Assembly (NCBI GenBank): GCA_025362495.1
Contig: JANYGI010000026.1
Span: 130,118-194,117, forward strand
DNA length: 64,000 nt
Direction of reading: 5' to 3'
Origin: Byssovorax sp.
GTDB taxonomy: Bacteria > Myxococcota_A > Polyangia > Polyangiales > Polyangiaceae
Under the pieces are notes generated by a model. The model was not told where the DNA came from. It worked only from the letters and a program-made list of their open reading frames with translations, and ran no database searches. This document shows, piece by piece, positions 48,542 through 56,464 of the stretch (the first letter of the stretch is position 1; each line of letters opens with the position of its first letter). A program made the position numbers and the translations under genes.

Positions 48542-49495
48542 TCAGGCGCGACGACGCGCGAGGATCGGCGGCATGGGCTCGGTGCTCGCCCAGCGCGGGC
48601 GCGGGGTGCGCGCCTGATCGAGCGCCAGCGCGAAGCTCGGCGCGTCGGCGAAGCGATCCTCGGGGCGCTTGGCCATGGCGCGGGCGATGACCTCGTCGAG
48701 GCCCTCGGGCAGAGGCGACGGCGCGATGGTCGACGGCCGCGGCGGATCGAGCGTGCGGTGCGCGGCGAGGAGCTCCTCGACATCGACGAGGTCGGCGAAG
48801 GGGCCGCGCCCGGTCACCATCGTGTAGAGCACGATCCCCATCGCGTAGAGATCGGTGCGCGCGTCGACGCGCGAGCCCGAGGCCTGCTCGGGCGAGAAGA
48901 AGCGCGGCGTGCCCATCGTCACGCCCTCCTCGGTGCTGGCGGAGAGCGGCTTCGGTGCGCGCCCGCCCGCGCTGCCGAGCACCTTGGCGAGCCCGAAATC
49001 GAGGAGCTTGAGCACGCGACCCACCGCGCCGGCGCGCGGCTCGCAGAGGAACAGGTTCGCCAGGGTCACGTCGCGATGCACGACGCCGGCCTCGTGCGCG
49101 GCGCCGAGCCCGGCCAGCGCTTGCCGCGCGAGATCGATGGCCTCGGCCGCGGGGAGCGCGCCGCGGACCTCGAGCTCCTCGCGCAGCGTGCGGCCGCGGA
49201 GGCGCTCCATCACGAGGTACGGCCGCCCCTCCATCGTCACCTGGAGATCGAGCACGGCGACCAGGTTCTCGTGCTCGAGGCGCGCCAGCGTCTGCCCTTC
49301 GAGGCGCATCCGATCGACGACGTCCGGCCGGCCGGCCAGATCGCGCTGCAGCAGCTTCACCGCCACCGTCTTGCCGAGCGCGCGGTGCTCGGCCTCGACG
49401 ACTTCGCCGGTCGCGCCGCGGCCGATCGGCGCGATCGAGCGGTACGGGGTTCCAACCAGTGGATCGAGGGCGATGGAGGTGGGGCTTCGGGTCAC
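48542..49495 (-). CDS. Serine/threonine protein kinase (soluble)
   Basis: A 317-residue Hanks-type kinase filling nearly the whole protein: glycine loop GRGATGEV, VAVKLL, DFG in LLDFGLAKV and the APE equivalent FFSPEQA. The catalytic loop reads HRDVTLAN in place of HRDLKPxN: the catalytic Asp is kept but Lys is Thr, a change seen in other myxobacterial kinases (often Ser/Thr), so activity is uncertain. No membrane segment or extra domain; only a short basic tail. GTG start 49495. Followed closely by other signalling genes on the same strand. Confidence 0.9.
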   Translation of the reverse strand: MTRSPTSIALDPLVGTPYRSIAPIGRGATGEVVEAEHRALGKTVAVKLLQRDLAGRPDVVDRMRLEGQTLARLEHENLVAVLDLQVTMEGRPYLVMERLRGRTLREELEVRGALPAAEAIDLARQALAGLGAAHEAGVVHRDVTLANLFLCEPRAGAVGRVLKLLDFGLAKVLGSAGGRAPKPLSASTEEGVTMGTPRFFSPEQASGSRVDARTDLYAMGIVLYTMVTGRGPFADLVDVEELLAAHRTLDPPRPSTIAPSPLPEGLDEVIARAMAKRPEDRFADAPSFALALDQARTPRPRWASTEPMPPILARRRA

Positions 49496-50075: not shown

Positions 50076-51587
50076 CTATCCGCGGAGCAACAGCACGTAG
50101 GCGGCGATCATCAGCGCGACGATCGAGAGCCCGATCGCGAGGCCGAGCGCGCCGCTCACGGGCGAGGTCGCGGCGCGGGCCGGCGGGCGCGTGAACGCGG
50201 CCGGGGCCGGGGCCGGGGCCGGAGCCGGGGCGAAGTACGCGCCGGGCGCGAGCGGCGGCGGCGCCACCACGTTCACGGCGGCCGCCGCGTGGCCGCGCGC
50301 GTGGGGGATCACGTCCGACGAGATGGACTTCTCGGTCCGCGCGAAGGCAACGACGGGCGCCGGCACCGGCGGAGGCGGCCCGAACGTGGGCGCCAGGGGC
50401 GGCGCCGCGAAGCCGCGCGGAGACACGGCGATGTCTGCCGACGACGTCCGCACCAGGGTGCGCTGATCATCGGACGAGTCCGGCATCTCGTCGTCGCGCT
50501 CGCGGCCTTCGCCGATCGGCGTCTTCACGCCGGGGAGCGCGCCGGCGCTCGGCGCGGCGCGCGGGGGCGACGGCGGAGGCACGTCGAGCGTCACCGCGGT
50601 CGGTCGCGTCGACGTGCCCGCGCCGTGCGCGTCGCCGCGCGCGAGGCCGACCCGCGTCTCGGGGATGTCCGGGAGCAGCTTGCGCAGCGACGCGCCGAGG
50701 TGCCGCGCCGTCTGGTGCCGCTCGGCGGGGCGCTTCGACAGCGTCTTCAAGATCAGGGCCGCGAGCCGCGGATCGATGTCGGGGGAGAAGCTCGACGGCG
50801 ACGGTGGAGGCTCGTGGATGTGCAGCACCGAGGTGTGGAGCGGCGTCTGCCCCTCGAACGGCAGGCGCCCCGTCACGAGCTGGAACAGGAGCACGCCGCA
50901 CGTGTAGATGTCGGCCCGCGTATCGACCGGCAGGAGCGCGCATTGCTCGGGCGACATGTACGCCGGGGTCCCGATGAACGTGCCCGCGCGCGTCACCGCC
51001 GAGGCCGGATCGAGCCGGGGATCGCGCCGGTCGCCCTGATCGGCGGCGATGGCGTCGGCCGCCAGGATCTTGGCGATCCCGAAGTCGAGCACCTTCACCC
51101 GCTCGCCGCTCGGGTGCGTGGGATCGGCGATCACCATGATGTTCTCGGGCTTGAGGTCCCGGTGCACGATCCCGAGCTCGTGGGCGACGATCAGCGCGTC
51201 GCAGACGTCGATCAGGATCCGCACCGCGCGGGCCTGCGGGAGCGAGCCCTGCTGCTCGAGCAGCACGTAGAGATCGCTGCCGACCAGGAGCTCCATCGCG
51301 ATGTAGCTGAGGCCGTCGGCCACGCCGTAATCAATGATTTGCACCGAGCAGGCGTGCTTGACGCGGGCCGAGGCCTTGGCCTCGCGCTCGAAGCGGCGGA
51401 CGAACGTGCGATCGTTCGTCAGGTCCTGGTTCATGATCTTGAGCGCGACCTCGCGCGGCTCGGCGGCCTGCTCGGCGACATAGACCGTGGCCATCCCGCC
51501 CTCGCCGAGGAAACTCTTGATGGTGAACCGGCCGGCAACCTGCTTTCCCACGAGCGCTTTGTGCTTGAAGGCCACGGGTCCGACCAA
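50076..51587 (-). CDS. Membrane-anchored Ser/Thr protein kinase (PknB-like)
   Basis: A 503-residue Hanks-type kinase. Kinase domain about 18-285: GEGGMATV, VALKIM, HRDLKPEN, VLDFGIAKI, YMSPEQ, all intact. A long Pro/Ala-rich juxtamembrane linker (about 300-475, with A-P-A-P repeats) leads to a C-terminal helix GLAIGLSIVALMIAAYVLLL and only two residues outside, so there is no sensor domain. Start TTG 51587 is chosen because GGGGAG lies 8 bases upstream; the next options upstream lack a site. Leads the run of kinase and hypothetical genes on the minus strand; the FHA protein at 52973-56464 may read its phosphorylations (inference). Confidence 0.87.
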   Translation of the reverse strand: MVGPVAFKHKALVGKQVAGRFTIKSFLGEGGMATVYVAEQAAEPREVALKIMNQDLTNDRTFVRRFEREAKASARVKHACSVQIIDYGVADGLSYIAMELLVGSDLYVLLEQQGSLPQARAVRILIDVCDALIVAHELGIVHRDLKPENIMVIADPTHPSGERVKVLDFGIAKILAADAIAADQGDRRDPRLDPASAVTRAGTFIGTPAYMSPEQCALLPVDTRADIYTCGVLLFQLVTGRLPFEGQTPLHTSVLHIHEPPPSPSSFSPDIDPRLAALILKTLSKRPAERHQTARHLGASLRKLLPDIPETRVGLARGDAHGAGTSTRPTAVTLDVPPPSPPRAAPSAGALPGVKTPIGEGRERDDEMPDSSDDQRTLVRTSSADIAVSPRGFAAPPLAPTFGPPPPVPAPVVAFARTEKSISSDVIPHARGHAAAAVNVVAPPPLAPGAYFAPAPAPAPAPAAFTRPPARAATSPVSGALGLAIGLSIVALMIAAYVLLLRG

Positions 51588-51595
51588 GGTGAGTT

Positions 51596-51601
51596 CTCCC
51601 C
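51596..51601 (-). promoter_or_regulatory. Ribosome-binding site supporting TTG start of the kinase gene
   Basis: GGGGAG on the minus strand, 8 bases before TTG 51587; no equally good site exists for other start codons in frame. Confidence 0.55.
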
Positions 51602-51771
51602 GAAAACGAGAGTCTACCAACAAACCGCCCGCGTCCCGGAGCGAAGATCATGCGCCGGGGATCGACGCCTCGTCGTCGCGGTGAGGCGCCCCGGGCGGCG
51701 TCCGCGATGGACTCGCGCGTTTCGATCTGTCCAGGAAAGCCCGCGTGCGAGTAGCATCCGCGGATCCCCAC

Positions 51772-52932
51772 ATGGCACCTCGAATCTCCCCTCTTCTCGG
51801 CGCGACCCTCGTCTCTCTGCTCACCGCCTGCGGTCCGACGCGCGTGGCGATAAGCCCTCGCGACGTCGTCGACGTCGTCGTGCGGCCGGCCGCGGGGCCC
51901 GCGGTGTTCTGCCCCGGAGAGGCCTTCAAGGTCGAGGTCGTGGCTCACCTCCAGAACGGGCAATACTGCAGCAGCACCGATCGCACGCGCGGCTGCATGA
52001 AAGAGCAAGACGCCGTCATCGATCCCGTGCAGGTCCACCTCGAGGGCTCGACCGGCGGGATCCAGGGCAACCCGAAGAAGTTCCTCTGGGCCACCAGCGA
52101 CGATCCCCTCGTCACCGCGTCGACCGGCCTCGCGCTCAAAGCCTGGATCGAGCAGGCGGCGCCCGGCGGTGTCGAGCGATCCATGGTCGCGCAGACTCGC
52201 CTCGTGCCGATCTATGCGTGTCAGTCCCGCGCCCTCTTCGGCGGCGGGAGCGGCGGCTTTCGCGGCGAGAACGGCGGCCCCGGCCCTGATCTCGACATCG
52301 CCGTGACCACGCTCGCCAGCCCGTTTTACCCGGAGGCGGCGCTGATCCGGGTGATCAGCGGGACACATCGAGTCTATTACATCAGCCCCTCTCCGGCCGA
52401 GCCCGTGCAGATCACCTCGGCGGCCGAGGCCGGCGGCCAGGGCGCGTCGGGCCAGAACGGGTTCGACGGCGCGGCGGGCCAGGACGGCTCGGCCGCGTGC
52501 TCGCGCGGCGGCAACGGCGAGCACGGGAGGCACGGTTTCCCGGGCTCGAACGGCGGTAACGGCGGGCCCGGGGGGTTCATCCGGGTAACGCTCGACCGCG
52601 CCGCGGCAGGGCGCCTGCGCGGGCGGGTCCTGGCCACGAGCCAGGGCGGAGACGCCGGGCGCGCGGGCAACGGCGGCACCGGCGGCAGGGGCGGTCGAGC
52701 CGGTAACGGCGGGCCGTCGAGCCCCGATTGCCCCTCGGGCGGCGTCGCCGGCGAGAGCGGGCGCAATGGCAACGACGGCATGAGCGGGCAAGCGGGGTAT
52801 GCCGGGCCCAACGGGCCTTTGCCGGAGGTCGGGACGGCGAACCGAGAGGCCCTGTTCGGCACCGAGATGACGCTGATCCGTCAGATCGAGGCGACGAGGC
52901 TCCAGGAAGCCCCGGCGGCGACGACGAGGTGA
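51772..52932 (+). CDS. Gly-rich lipoprotein with collagen-like segment
   Basis: A 386-residue exported lipoprotein. ATG 51772 opens a signal peptide with lipobox LLTAC (Cys20). A conserved-looking N-terminal domain (about 30-160; VAHLQNGQYCSSTDRTRGCM) is followed by Gly-rich sequence twice: FGGGSGGFRGENGGPGPD (about 164-181) and a longer run (about 226-370) of irregular G-x-x repeats such as GQNGFDGAAGQDG and GRAGNGGTGGRGGRAGNGG, reminiscent of collagen-like or Gly-rich surface proteins. The stop codon lies within the hairpin shared with the convergent FHA gene. Surface location and structural role are inferred. Confidence 0.78.
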   Translation: MAPRISPLLGATLVSLLTACGPTRVAISPRDVVDVVVRPAAGPAVFCPGEAFKVEVVAHLQNGQYCSSTDRTRGCMKEQDAVIDPVQVHLEGSTGGIQGNPKKFLWATSDDPLVTASTGLALKAWIEQAAPGGVERSMVAQTRLVPIYACQSRALFGGGSGGFRGENGGPGPDLDIAVTTLASPFYPEAALIRVISGTHRVYYISPSPAEPVQITSAAEAGGQGASGQNGFDGAAGQDGSAACSRGGNGEHGRHGFPGSNGGNGGPGGFIRVTLDRAAAGRLRGRVLATSQGGDAGRAGNGGTGGRGGRAGNGGPSSPDCPSGGVAGESGRNGNDGMSGQAGYAGPNGPLPEVGTANREALFGTEMTLIRQIEATRLQEAPAATTR

Positions 52933-52976
52933 GCGACCGGGTCGCGCGACGCTCTCTCGCGCCGCGCGACGCTCAC
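52929..52976. terminator. Large inverted repeat spanning two convergent stop codons
   Basis: GTGAGCG (52929-52935) pairs with CGCTCAC (52970-52976), and GTCGCGCG (52941-52948) with CGCGCGAC (52963-52970). The repeat contains the stop codons of both convergent genes. No U-tract; probably a bidirectional intrinsic or Rho-assisted end. Confidence 0.5.
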
Positions 52977-55900
52977 TTCTCGAAGAGGGCCCGCAGCCCG
53001 GCCGGGATCCGCAGCGACTCGTGAGGCACCTTGAGCGAGGCTGTCCCGATCACCGCGCTGAGCACGCACAGCCCCTGCCGCGGCAGGTGATCGAGCCAGT
53101 AAAGGCCGACGGTCCCCTCGGGGGCCATGCGCCGCATCAGGGGCTCCAGAGGCACCATGACGCCCTCGCGCCACCGCACCAGATAGACCACGTTGGCGAG
53201 GCGCGCCGGCGTGGAGAGGCCGATGCGGCGGCGCACTCCCCCGTCGAAAGGGCCAGTGTGATCGAGGTAATCGACGGTCTGCGCGTCGCCGTAGGGATCG
53301 GGATCCGTCTTCTCGACCGTGACCAGCGTCCAGGCCCGGAGCGGGCGCAGGGCGCGGAGGAGCGTGCGAGTCATCTGCTCGAGCTCGGGCAGATCCGCCG
53401 CGGCGCGGGCCTCGCTGTACTGACCGTGCGCGAAGCCGTTGCGCTCCGACTGCATCAGGTTGGAGAGCGTCTCGAAGGTCTGGTTGGAGCCGAGCTTGAC
53501 GTCGAGGATCTCGCGCGCCGTGGCGCCGAACGCGTCGCGCGCCGGATCGAGGAGCCCCGCGGCGGTGCGGGCGAGCTCGCGCCAGGTGCCGAGCGGATAC
53601 CCGGCGCGGGTGCCGAGGCGCTTGGCGAGGCGCACCAGCGGCTCCAGCGACGCCGGGGTCGCCTCGGCGCGGGCAAACACGGCAGCGAGAGTCGCCACCG
53701 CGAGGAAACGCCAGGTGCTCTCCAGCACGTCGAAGAGCATCTTCACGCGCTCGATCGCGCTCGACGCCGAGATGGCCGCGTGCACCGTGCCGGCGATCGG
53801 GTAGGGGAGCCCGCCGCTCAGCGCCGATAGCACGCCGAGGGCCTCGCCGTGCTCGCGGGAGAGCTCCGCCGCGCGCTCGGCGGCGCCATCCTTGTGCAGG
53901 ATCTCCCAGGAAACCGAGCGTGGCAGCTCCGACAGGCCATCGGTCACGGCCGGGCGAGCGTGCCAGTCGCACTGGACGTGACTGGCAATCTCGCGGGCCT
54001 CGACGCTCTGGGGGACGACGGCGGCGATCACGCCCGGCGCGAGCGCGGCCACCAGGGATCCCGGCGGCGCGTGGCCGGCGACGACGGCGGCGAGCTCGCC
54101 CTCGAGCGCGTCGAGGACCTGGGGGCCAATCTCGCGGAGCGCGCTCTGCTCTTCCACGGCGAAGAGCAGCGTCGTGCGGCGGGCGCTGGTCGAGGCCGCG
54201 AGCGCCTCGCCCGCGGTGGTGATCCGGGCCCCCTGTGCCACGTCGCGGAGGTTCTTCGCCGCTGTGGTCGTGGCGTCGGCGGGGACGCGGATCATCGCCG
54301 AGAGCGAGAGCTCGAGCTCGCTCGCGGCCAGGGTCGCCTCGCCGGCGAAGGACCATGTTCCGTGCGCGAGCGACGCCAGGCCGGCGCCGCGGCAGAGCCC
54401 CGCGAGCAGCACCGCGGCCGAGGCGATCTCGTTCGGCCGGCCCGGCGCGAGCACGACGAACGTGCCTTCGACGAGGCCCACGGCGAGCGTCGGCCAGCGG
54501 CGGTGAACGGCCATCGCGGCGCGCACCATCGGAGAATGTGACCCGTCGCTCGGCGTCGGCGAGGCGGGCGCGGCGCGGGAGCCGCCTTCTCCGGCGCGCA
54601 CCAGCATCATCGCGCCGGCGCCGCGCTGCTCCAGGAAACAGCCAATCTCGAGCTCGAGGCCCGCCCGGCCGAGCAGGCCAGTCCCGGGATCCACCGTGCC
54701 CGCGGCGACCGCCGGCGTGAGGTAGCGTCGGTCGGCGAGGACCGCGCGCATGTCGCCGATCACGATCGGCACGGCGTGGACGAGCGGCGCTTCCTCGCCG
54801 CGGGCGAGCGTCCGCGCGCCGACCTCGACTGGCACGCTGCACTCGTCGCGGCGCCGCAGCCACCAGCGGATTCCATCGTGGCGCAGCGTGGCCGCGAAGC
54901 GCGAGGCCACGTCGGGCACCACCAGCTCGTTGCGCTCGGCGCCCTCGCCGGCGATCCTCCCGAGGCGCAGCGGCCCCGGCAAATCCAGGCGGAGCTCGGT
55001 GACGGCGCCGTCGCGCGCCTCGATCCGCAGCCGATCGGGAGGATCGATGTCGCCCCGCCACACCGCTTGACGTCGCCAGAGCGTCGGCACCGGCGCCGTC
55101 GCCGCGCGGGTGGGGGGAGCCACGGTGATCGACGGAGGTGTGATGTCCGGCGGAGGTGCGATGACCGGCGGAGGTGCGATGACCGGCGGAGGTGCGATGA
55201 CCGGCGGAGAGGCGATGACCGGCGGAGAGGCGATGACCGGCGGAGAGGCGATGACCGGAGCAGGAGCGATGACCGGCGGAGAGGCGATGACCGGGACAGG
55301 CTGGATCGCGGCCGGCGGCGGCGGCGCGGGAGGCACGGGGAGGCGGGGTGGCGGAGAGGGCCAGTCCATGGGCATCGTCCCGTGGAGGCCCGCGGGGCGC
55401 GCCGTCGCTGTGTCGACCGCCGGTGCGGCGAGGTAGGCCACGACGCCGGCATTTCCCGCCTGGATCGCGGCGTCAACGGGCCACACCAGCGCGGCGCCCG
55501 GGTGCTCGAGGGCGACGGCGACGCGCAGCCCGCGCAGATCCGCCTCGCCGCCGCGGAGAGGGAACGCGCCGCGCCACACCACGCTGAACGTCTCGGCGTC
55601 GGCGTCGATGGTCAAGGTGTCGACGACGAGGCCGAGATCGCGGACCGGGTCCCGGCTCTCCGGGTGGACGCGGGCCCGCGCGTGGATGCCGGGGAGCTGC
55701 GTTTGCAGGCGCGCTCGCGCGGCGTGCATCCCATCGAGGACCAGCCACTCATCGCCGTGGAGCTGGGCTATCCGCTGGTCGTCGGGGGCGCTGTGAAAGT
55801 AGTCCCAGGCGAACGAGTCCGGGACCTCGAGAATGGCCCCCTCGGCGCGCTTCTTCGGCGCATCGCCGAGGAGCTTGCGGCGCTCGGCGCCGTAGCGCGA

Positions 55901-56464
55901 GATCGGGCCGAAGCCCGCCACGCGCGTCGGAGCCTTCGGATCCACCAGGTTGGGGAGCGCCACGGCGTCGCGGCCGGCGCCGATCCCGAGCGGGTTCTTC
56001 TCGAAGAGCAGGCCGCCATAGGCCCGCTCGTAGCGCAGCGGGATCCGCTCGAAGCGCGCGATCTGCGTCGGCGTGGCCACGGCGCGATCGCCGAAGACGT
56101 GGACTGTCTTGTCGAGCAGCGGGGCGCCGCGATAGAGGGCCAGCCGCACGGCGAGCGCGGTCAACGGCTGGCCGGCGGGCGCGCAGGCGTGGCCCACCGC
56201 CGTGACGTCGACAGCGGGCCGGTAGGGGACGAGATCGCTGGCGGCGCGCACAGTCCGCATCGGGCTGTTGTCGAAGCGGATCTCGTCGCGCACGATCGGC
56301 GCGGGCGCGACGAGGGCCGCGACGCCGCCCGGCGTGAACGCGAAGGTGGCCTTCGCGACGACGGTGACGCGGAGCACGCCGTGATGGCGGAACACCAGCG
56401 CAGCGGCCGCAACGGGCCCGGCGGCGACGAGGAGAACGGGTGAGGGCGGGGCGATCGTCGACAC
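52973..56464 (-). CDS. DUF2169-FHA-degenerate GGDEF protein with HEPN-like motif
   Basis: A 1163-residue cytoplasmic multidomain protein. Residues about 20-350 match DUF2169, a domain found next to type VI secretion genes: VVAKATFAF, RPAVDVTAVGHACAPAGQPL, VFGDRA, PLRYERAYGGLLFEKNPLG and ALPNLVDP. Next a linker of VIASPP/VIAPPP hexapeptides (about 390-443), an FHA-like domain (about 490-570; RLGRIAGEGAERNELVV, DVASRFAATL; the usual His is absent), and DPGTGLLGRAGLELEIG (about 591), a GGDEF start without a GGDEF active site. Near the C terminus SERNGFAHG (R1008-N-x3-H1013) fits the Rx4-6H motif of HEPN domains. Start GTG 56464. No other secretion gene is in the window, so the T6SS link rests on family knowledge only. 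Confidence 0.78.
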   Translation of the reverse strand: MSTIAPPSPVLLVAAGPVAAAALVFRHHGVLRVTVVAKATFAFTPGGVAALVAPAPIVRDEIRFDNSPMRTVRAASDLVPYRPAVDVTAVGHACAPAGQPLTALAVRLALYRGAPLLDKTVHVFGDRAVATPTQIARFERIPLRYERAYGGLLFEKNPLGIGAGRDAVALPNLVDPKAPTRVAGFGPISRYGAERRKLLGDAPKKRAEGAILEVPDSFAWDYFHSAPDDQRIAQLHGDEWLVLDGMHAARARLQTQLPGIHARARVHPESRDPVRDLGLVVDTLTIDADAETFSVVWRGAFPLRGGEADLRGLRVAVALEHPGAALVWPVDAAIQAGNAGVVAYLAAPAVDTATARPAGLHGTMPMDWPSPPPRLPVPPAPPPPAAIQPVPVIASPPVIAPAPVIASPPVIASPPVIASPPVIAPPPVIAPPPVIAPPPDITPPSITVAPPTRAATAPVPTLWRRQAVWRGDIDPPDRLRIEARDGAVTELRLDLPGPLRLGRIAGEGAERNELVVPDVASRFAATLRHDGIRWWLRRRDECSVPVEVGARTLARGEEAPLVHAVPIVIGDMRAVLADRRYLTPAVAAGTVDPGTGLLGRAGLELEIGCFLEQRGAGAMMLVRAGEGGSRAAPASPTPSDGSHSPMVRAAMAVHRRWPTLAVGLVEGTFVVLAPGRPNEIASAAVLLAGLCRGAGLASLAHGTWSFAGEATLAASELELSLSAMIRVPADATTTAAKNLRDVAQGARITTAGEALAASTSARRTTLLFAVEEQSALREIGPQVLDALEGELAAVVAGHAPPGSLVAALAPGVIAAVVPQSVEAREIASHVQCDWHARPAVTDGLSELPRSVSWEILHKDGAAERAAELSREHGEALGVLSALSGGLPYPIAGTVHAAISASSAIERVKMLFDVLESTWRFLAVATLAAVFARAEATPASLEPLVRLAKRLGTRAGYPLGTWRELARTAAGLLDPARDAFGATAREILDVKLGSNQTFETLSNLMQSERNGFAHGQYSEARAAADLPELEQMTRTLLRALRPLRAWTLVTVEKTDPDPYGDAQTVDYLDHTGPFDGGVRRRIGLSTPARLANVVYLVRWREGVMVPLEPLMRRMAPEGTVGLYWLDHLPRQGLCVLSAVIGTASLKVPHESLRIPAGLRALFEK
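55134..55295 (-). repeat. 18-bp tandem repeat, about 9 units, coding
   Basis: Plus-strand unit GGAGGTGCGATGACCGGC (three exact copies at 55152-55205), with GGAGAGGCGATGACCGGC variants downstream. It encodes the Pro-Val-Ile-Ala hexapeptides of the DUF2169-FHA linker. Near-identity of units suggests recent copy-number change. Confidence 0.88.

What the first reader, a model, noticed from the sequence alone, without database searches (positions are those of the whole stretch)
52973..56464. DUF2169-FHA-pseudo-GGDEF protein ending in a HEPN-like R-N-x3-H motif
DUF2169 (PLRYERAYGG, VFGDRA) is known mainly as a T6SS-linked domain. Here it is joined through a variable hexapeptide linker to an FHA-like domain, a GGDEF-like start without its active site and, at R1008-H1013 in SERNGFAHG, a motif matching the Rx4-6H of HEPN RNases (polar residue after R, small residue after H). 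If the last match is real, this could be a phospho-Thr-addressed effector or adaptor with RNase activity. The architecture is not one I know as described.
Basis: partly seen in the sequence, partly recalled or inferred. Interest (0 to 1): 0.66.

Follow-up and report, generated by a model that had tools for sequence, protein, structure and literature searches.

The report
Swapped-kinase protein with HEPN-like RNase domain
A myxobacterial gene joins a secretion-chaperone domain to a signalling module that usually follows a protein kinase and ends in a predicted RNA-cutting HEPN domain, which suggests (but does not show) a kinase-linked RNase comparable in layout to eukaryotic Ire1 and RNase L.

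Summary
The minus-strand ORF 52973-56464 (1163 aa) has DUF2169 (Pfam 3.9e-56), a VIAxPP-repeat linker, an FHA fold, a GGDEF fold without the GGDEF motif, and an all-helical C-terminal region with R1008-N-x3-H1013. R1008 and N1009 are invariant in 24/24 rows that reach them, H1013 in 23/23; the spacer varies. The motif sits at the end of a helix, with an invariant acidic residue (E915-x3-R919) upstream, as described for HEPN domains. In 22 distant relatives the acidic residue and RNx(3-4)H are kept together (12/12) and mostly lost together (8/10). Relatives carry the domain on type I restriction HsdR, NACHT-like ATPases, kinases and FHA proteins. No library names it HEPN, and fold and profile comparisons are only suggestive: membership is likely, not proven; RNase activity is untested. 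The module is normally fused to a Ser/Thr kinase, as in the genome's own paralogue (57% identity). DUF2169 replaces the kinase only here; two kinase genes lie 1.3 and 3.5 kb downstream. A T6SS role lacks local support: no VgrG or DUF4150 gene was found nearby. The FHA phosphopeptide signature is partly eroded. New variant of a known kind.

The parts
52973..56464 (-). whole gene, 1163 aa: DUF2169 - repeat linker - FHA fold - pseudo-GGDEF fold - second alpha/beta domain - HEPN-like domain - C-terminal beta domain
   Evidence: ORF and translation; codon-position GC supports this frame; homologues
55571..56380 (-). DUF2169 domain, residues 29-298
   Evidence: Pfam PF09937 E 3.9e-56; about 20 further DUF2169 matches in the same genome
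55133..55297 (-). Pro-rich (VIAxPP)n linker, residues 390-444
   Evidence: sequence
54719..55045 (-). FHA-fold domain, residues about 474-582; Gly502-Arg503 and Ser521 invariant, FHA His and Asn replaced
   Evidence: model; VIA-align Z 14.3, 2.2 A over 100 residues to Bdellovibrio DgcB FHA 6hc0; conservation; FHA Pfam hits in relatives L074, L100, L102
54239..54709 (-). pseudo-GGDEF domain, residues about 586-742; the D-x2-TGLLxR start is kept, the GGDEF motif is absent
   Evidence: VIA-align Z 12-13 to several GGDEF structures; collinear relative L102 has a Pfam GGDEF at 9.5e-39
53879..54229 (-). second alpha/beta domain, residues about 746-862, beta-alpha-alpha-beta-beta-alpha order, unassigned
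   Evidence: AlphaFold secondary structure, pLDDT mostly 80-96
53327..53818 (-). HEPN-like all-helical domain, residues about 883-1046
   Evidence: two AlphaFold models; motif anatomy; hhalign to HepT and DUF4145 in register
53426..53443 (-). R1008-N-G-F-A-H1013, candidate HEPN active-site motif (Rx4H)
   Evidence: invariant in all homologous rows that reach it; end of helix 997-1012
53708..53722 (-). E915-x3-R919, candidate second HEPN motif (Ex3[KR])
   Evidence: invariant 24/24; acidic residue kept in 12/12 distant relatives that keep RNx(3-4)H, lost in 8/10 that lost it
52976..53329 (-). C-terminal beta-rich domain, residues 1046-1163, accompanies the HEPN-like domain in distant relatives
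   Evidence: model; alignment with distant relatives
50076..51623 (-). neighbouring Ser/Thr protein kinase gene, same strand, possible in-trans partner (not shown)
   Evidence: Pfam Pkinase 1.5e-40
48542..49495 (-). second neighbouring Ser/Thr protein kinase gene, same strand
   Evidence: Pfam Pkinase 7.6e-38

Best explanation
The protein is a phosphorylation-linked signalling protein whose output is a HEPN-type, metal-independent RNase acting on RNA in the cell that makes it. In most complete relatives the same module (FHA fold, pseudo-GGDEF, HEPN-like domain, beta domain) sits directly behind a Ser/Thr kinase, so the likely mechanism is: the kinase state is sensed by the FHA/pseudo-GGDEF part, which changes the position or pairing of the HEPN domain and exposes R1008/H1013 and E915 for RNA cleavage, in layout like Ire1/RNase L (kinase plus HEPN-fold KEN domain). 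In this protein the kinase has been exchanged for a DUF2169 docking domain, so kinase input, if any, would come in trans (two kinase genes lie nearby) and DUF2169 would give the module a new binding partner. Shown: domain order, FHA and GGDEF folds, helical C-terminal region, invariant motif residues, kinase fusion in relatives. Inferred: HEPN homology (likely), RNase activity, phospho-control, the role of DUF2169.
For: DUF2169 3.9e-56. Module in the genome's own paralogue (57% identity) behind a kinase domain, and in 30 of 183 genomes of the order, almost all one family. Of 24 GTDB loci 12 carry the kinase motif HRDLK and none carries DUF2169. FHA and GGDEF folds. R1008, N1009 24/24; F1011, A1012, H1013 23/23; E915, R919 24/24. 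R1008 near the end of a helix and H1013 just after it in two models, as the HEPN literature describes (PMC3710099). Acidic residue and RNx(3-4)H co-retained 12/12 and mostly co-lost, hypergeometric P 1.4e-4 ignoring phylogeny. hhalign places RNx3H on the HepT RNxLVH and on the DUF4145 GNxAxH, E 0.003-0.006, against 0.02-0.5 for Hpt and reversed controls. VIA-align second look lists HEPN toxin 8xdj Z 6.8, 8xeh Z 6.0 and MtlR-type proteins. Relatives on HsdR, NACHT/AAA, kinase, FHA and FHA-GGDEF.
Against: Pfam, NCBIfam and PADLOC name no HEPN here. Foldseek finds no HEPN structure at a meaningful E-value, and the VIA-align Z values are in the range where helical bundles match by chance. Some relatives of the same architecture (L077, L098: kinase-FHA-GGDEF) have lost the motif, so a role without catalysis exists in this family. 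The FHA His and Asn are lost. The two neighbouring kinase genes are separated from the gene by a convergent lipoprotein-like gene.
Confidence: 0.5

Rival explanations
1. The C-terminal region is a HEPN-fold scaffold or RNA-binding adaptor without catalytic activity; the protein works as an assembly or signalling hub and the conserved R, N and H are structural or bind a ligand.
For: Several relatives with the same or similar architecture have lost RNxxxH (L077, L098, the ATPase-linked L103, L109, L110, L112, L114, L115). The GGDEF and FHA parts are themselves degenerate, so the whole chain could be non-catalytic.
Against: In the window's own subfamily every motif residue is invariant while neighbours vary, and the acidic residue is lost together with RNxxxH in most degenerate relatives, the pattern of an active site rather than of a structural core.
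Confidence: 0.27
2. The helical C-terminal domain is not HEPN at all but an unrelated helical bundle in which RNxxAHG arose independently.
For: No significant library, Foldseek or Pfam match to HEPN.
Against: Helix placement of both motifs, co-retention of E and RNx(3-4)H, in-register profile alignment with HepT and DUF4145 above controls, and association with HsdR, NACHT and kinases.
Confidence: 0.13
3. A T6SS-linked protein: DUF2169 docks it on a PAAR-like/VgrG spike, and the FHA-HEPN part is cargo injected into competitors or reports phospho-state to T6SS assembly.
For: DUF2169 proteins chaperone VgrG-DUF4150 spikes (PMC11883445; PMC13373197). The genome has a T6SS gene (TssF) and ten DUF4150 matches.
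Against: Neither DUF4150 nor VgrG was found among the window genes tested, and none of the DUF4150 matches is on contig C154; neighbours on the other side are flagellar genes. No immunity gene was recognised. The HEPN-bearing module in all other homologues is not linked to DUF2169. DUF2169 is described as a chaperone, not as exported cargo.
Confidence: 0.1

Closest known systems
HEPN superfamily (Anantharaman et al. 2013, PMC3710099), including the KEN domain of Ire1/RNase L
   Same: All-helical domain, Rx4-6H with N after R at the end of a helix, Ex3[KR] in an upstream helix; kinase-HEPN order in half of the relatives, as in Ire1 and RNase L; association with restriction and STAND-type ATPases.
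   Different: No significant sequence or fold match to any named HEPN family; the domain is followed by its own beta-rich domain; FHA and pseudo-GGDEF lie between kinase and HEPN.
Bdellovibrio DgcB, FHA-GGDEF diguanylate cyclase (PMC6733907)
   Same: FHA followed by GGDEF; best structural match of the model.
   Different: DgcB has a consensus phosphopeptide-binding FHA and an active GGDEF; here the GGDEF motif is absent, the FHA His and Asn are lost, and a HEPN-like domain follows.
DUF2169 T6SS chaperones (Tap2, TvpA; PMC11883445, PMC13373197)
   Same: N-terminal DUF2169 domain, Pfam 3.9e-56.
   Different: Known multidomain forms mostly carry a pentapeptide-repeat domain; no VgrG or DUF4150 neighbour here; the C-terminal FHA/pseudo-GGDEF/HEPN-like module is not described in the papers searched.

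Membership tests
HEPN superfamily | Rx4-6H motif with a polar residue (N, D or H) after R | tested here: met
   RNGFAH at 1008-1013; R, N and H invariant in all homologous rows that reach them; definition from PMC3710099
HEPN superfamily | all-helical domain with the motif at the end of a helix and the start of the following loop | tested here: met
   helix 997-1012 then loop in two AlphaFold models; pLDDT about 82-85 overall but 67-74 around the motif in the short model
HEPN superfamily | acidic Ex3[KR] motif in an upstream helix | tested here: met
   E915-x3-R919 invariant 24/24; E or D kept in all motif-bearing distant relatives, the basic residue in most
HEPN superfamily | significant profile or fold match to a known HEPN family | tested here: inconclusive
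   hhalign E 0.003-0.006 single pair, in register, better than controls; Foldseek not significant; VIA-align Z 6.8 and 6.0 to HEPN toxins among other helical matches; no Pfam hit
HEPN superfamily | metal-independent RNase activity | not testable with these tools
   needs an assay
FHA domain | FHA beta-sandwich fold | tested here: met
   VIA-align Z up to 14.3, rmsd about 2 A over about 100 residues
FHA domain | conserved phosphopeptide-binding signature G-R, S, H, N | tested here: not met
   G502-R503 and S521 invariant, but His replaced by Ala524 and the N of NG lost; therefore filed as FHA fold only
GGDEF diguanylate cyclase | GGDEF fold | tested here: met
   VIA-align Z 12-13
GGDEF diguanylate cyclase | GG(D/E)EF active-site motif | tested here: not met
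   absent from the sequence and from the homologues aligned; collinear relative L102 has a GGDEF domain by Pfam
DUF2169 T6SS chaperone | DUF2169 domain | tested here: met
   Pfam 3.9e-56
DUF2169 T6SS chaperone | neighbouring VgrG and DUF4150 genes | tested here: not met
   no such Pfam hit in the window genes tested; no DUF4150 match on contig C154; VgrG was not searched genome-wide

The most novel reading that the evidence does not exclude
Myxobacteria have a kinase-controlled HEPN RNase with the same working logic as eukaryotic Ire1/RNase L (kinase state switches a HEPN RNase), built on an undescribed HEPN family that also arms HsdR and NACHT-like proteins, and this protein is a re-wired form in which a DUF2169 docking domain replaces the kinase.
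Probability: 0.25. Interest if true: 0.78.

Novelty: new variant of a known kind. Interest (0 to 1): 0.52.

Why it matters
If the HEPN assignment is right, a family of HEPN-like domains that the libraries searched here do not name sits at the end of bacterial Ser/Thr kinases, FHA-GGDEF proteins, type I restriction subunits and on NACHT-like ATPases in one phylum. That makes a kinase-to-RNase switch in bacteria directly testable, with natural motif-less relatives as controls, and gives the library builders a new profile to make.

Tried and rejected
Viral contigs: no relative. Plasmids by tblastn: none. Profile search of PDB sequences: nothing relevant. HEPN_Apea (PF18739) gave only two loci in 140 genomes, too few for a profile. 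Foldseek of the HEPN-only model: no meaningful match; no HEPN structure in its first 50 rows. hhalign of the FHA part to L102's FHA alone is weak, although the full module aligns collinearly with L102 over 586 columns (E 0.0013). The weak match in G461 (L048/L078) falls in an unrelated protein without the motif and was left out. Considered and rejected: spurious antisense ORF (codon-position GC). Papers searched for HEPN with FHA or kinase, DUF2169 with FHA, HEPN with HsdR: none describes this architecture; absence from that library is not proof.

Full report
Observation. The ORF 52973-56464 lies on the minus strand, starts with GTG and gives 1163 residues. Its codon-position GC (0.77/0.55/0.90) marks it as the coding frame among several long overlapping ORFs. 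Pfam finds one family, DUF2169 at residues 29-298, E 3.9e-56. A VIA[SPA]PP repeat linker spans residues 390-444.

The module and its usual partner. A whole-genome search gave about 20 DUF2169 matches and one match to the C-terminal half (57% identity, residues 390-1160) elsewhere in the same genome. That paralogue is a Ser/Thr kinase followed by the same module. In the order, 30 of 183 genomes have the HEPN-like region at E <= 0.001, nearly all in one family; a scan of GTDB genomes gave 24 named loci, mostly Polyangium, Sorangium and Polyangiaceae MAGs. Twelve of these ORFs carry the kinase motif HRDLK; the others are kinase-less or cut by contig ends; none has DUF2169. The window protein is therefore best read as a domain exchange: DUF2169 in place of the kinase. 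In three loci inspected (L050, L059, L063) the kinase-fused gene is followed on the same strand by another large kinase-like gene.

Folds. AlphaFold of residues 467-1163 with 25 rows: mean pLDDT 84.7, pTM 0.66. Foldseek and VIA-align place an FHA fold at residues about 474-582 (Z up to 14.3) and a GGDEF fold at about 586-742 (Z 12-13), with the Bdellovibrio FHA-GGDEF protein DgcB on top. In the FHA part Gly502-Arg503 and Ser521 are invariant but the signature His and Asn are lost. The GGDEF motif itself is absent. A second alpha/beta domain (about 746-862) is unassigned. A distant relative, L102, aligns collinearly with the whole module (586 columns, hhalign E 0.0013) and has FHA (1.4e-18) and GGDEF (9.5e-39) by Pfam, which supports both assignments.

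HEPN-like domain. Two models give helices only for residues about 878-1044, with the helix 997-1012 carrying R1008 and N1009 near its end and H1013 just after it. The HEPN review (PMC3710099) describes this place for Rx4-6H, with N, D or H after the R, and an acidic Ex3[KR] motif in an upstream helix; here E915-x3-R919. In the family alignment R1008 and N1009 are 24/24, F1011, A1012, H1013 23/23, E915 and R919 24/24, while residue 1010 takes six letters. In 22 distant relatives (21-27% identity to the window in the three that were measured), 12 keep RNx(3-4)H and all 12 keep the acidic residue; 10 lost the motif and 8 of these lost the acidic residue (P 1.4e-4 ignoring phylogeny). hhalign aligns RNx3H in register with HepT (E 0.003-0.006) and DUF4145 (0.0035); Hpt and reversed controls give 0.02-0.5. 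VIA-align of the HEPN-only model lists HEPN toxins 8xdj (Z 6.8) and 8xeh (Z 6.0) and MtlR-type structures, together with unrelated helical proteins; Foldseek alone is not significant. No library names the domain. I take HEPN membership as likely, not proven.

Company of the domain. Distant relatives carry it behind type I restriction HsdR (L075, L099, L101), before NACHT/AAA-like ATPases (L106, L108), before or behind kinases (L104, L077, L098), behind FHA (L074, L100) and FHA-GGDEF (L102). Motif loss is found in kinase-FHA-GGDEF relatives L077 and L098 and in ATPase-linked ones, so a non-catalytic role exists.

Context. The 3' neighbour 51745-52932 is on the plus strand and has no Pfam hit; its translation looks like a Gly-rich lipoprotein. 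Beyond it, two Ser/Thr kinase genes (50076-51623, 48542-49495) are on the gene's strand. Upstream are a glutathione S-transferase gene and flagellar genes. The genome has TssF on contig C211 and ten DUF4150 matches on other contigs. DUF2169 proteins are described as chaperones of VgrG-DUF4150 spikes, linked to those genes (PMC11883445), so a T6SS role for this protein is not supported by its surroundings.

Mechanism, with steps marked. Shown here: architecture, kinase fusion in relatives, conserved motifs. Inferred: HEPN fold (likely), RNase activity (plausible), phospho-control through FHA/pseudo-GGDEF (plausible, weakened by the eroded FHA signature), a docking role of DUF2169 (from family knowledge). 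The nearest working analogue is Ire1/RNase L, a kinase next to a HEPN-fold RNase.

Noticed in passing
window genome, contigs C173, C26, C59, C64, C41, C132, C113, C24, C94, C95, C48, C30, C46 (loci L003-L008, L209-L218): About 20 DUF2169 matches with different C-terminal parts behind Pro-rich linkers (tandem DUF2169; a recurring LWFDPE...LEQRxYxKR module; a recurring AAIAAAL helical module), more than the ten DUF4150 matches, unlike the 1:1 ratio reported in PMC11883445.
   Followed up: partly
G000:C173:110726-111106 (L219): A Ser/Thr kinase-like protein in the same genome carries a VIAAPPVIAPP repeat like the focal linker.
   Followed up: no
L069:7686-8765, L070:7725-8765: Kinase-less module genes lie directly behind a gene whose product begins GRPxGxFTQHRR...LYELADALxVTARSMRR, by eye a DNA-binding regulator.
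   Followed up: no
L050:11239-15780, L059:11397-15893, L063:11358-15926: A large kinase-like gene of about 1500 codons follows the kinase-fused HEPN-like gene on the same strand in all three loci.
   Followed up: no
L111 and L105: By eye, relatives of the HEPN-like domain behind a TIR-like N-terminus (L111, motif lost) and behind a cyclic-nucleotide-binding-like N-terminus (L105, RNDLRH kept).
   Followed up: no
L107: A relative with RNTWKGH sits behind a methyltransferase-like region that hits the PADLOC mad2 profile (2.7e-13).
   Followed up: no
window 51745-52932 (+): Gly-rich, lipoprotein-like protein (TACGPTRVAI...GGSGGFRGENGGPG) without Pfam hit, convergent with the focal gene.
   Followed up: no
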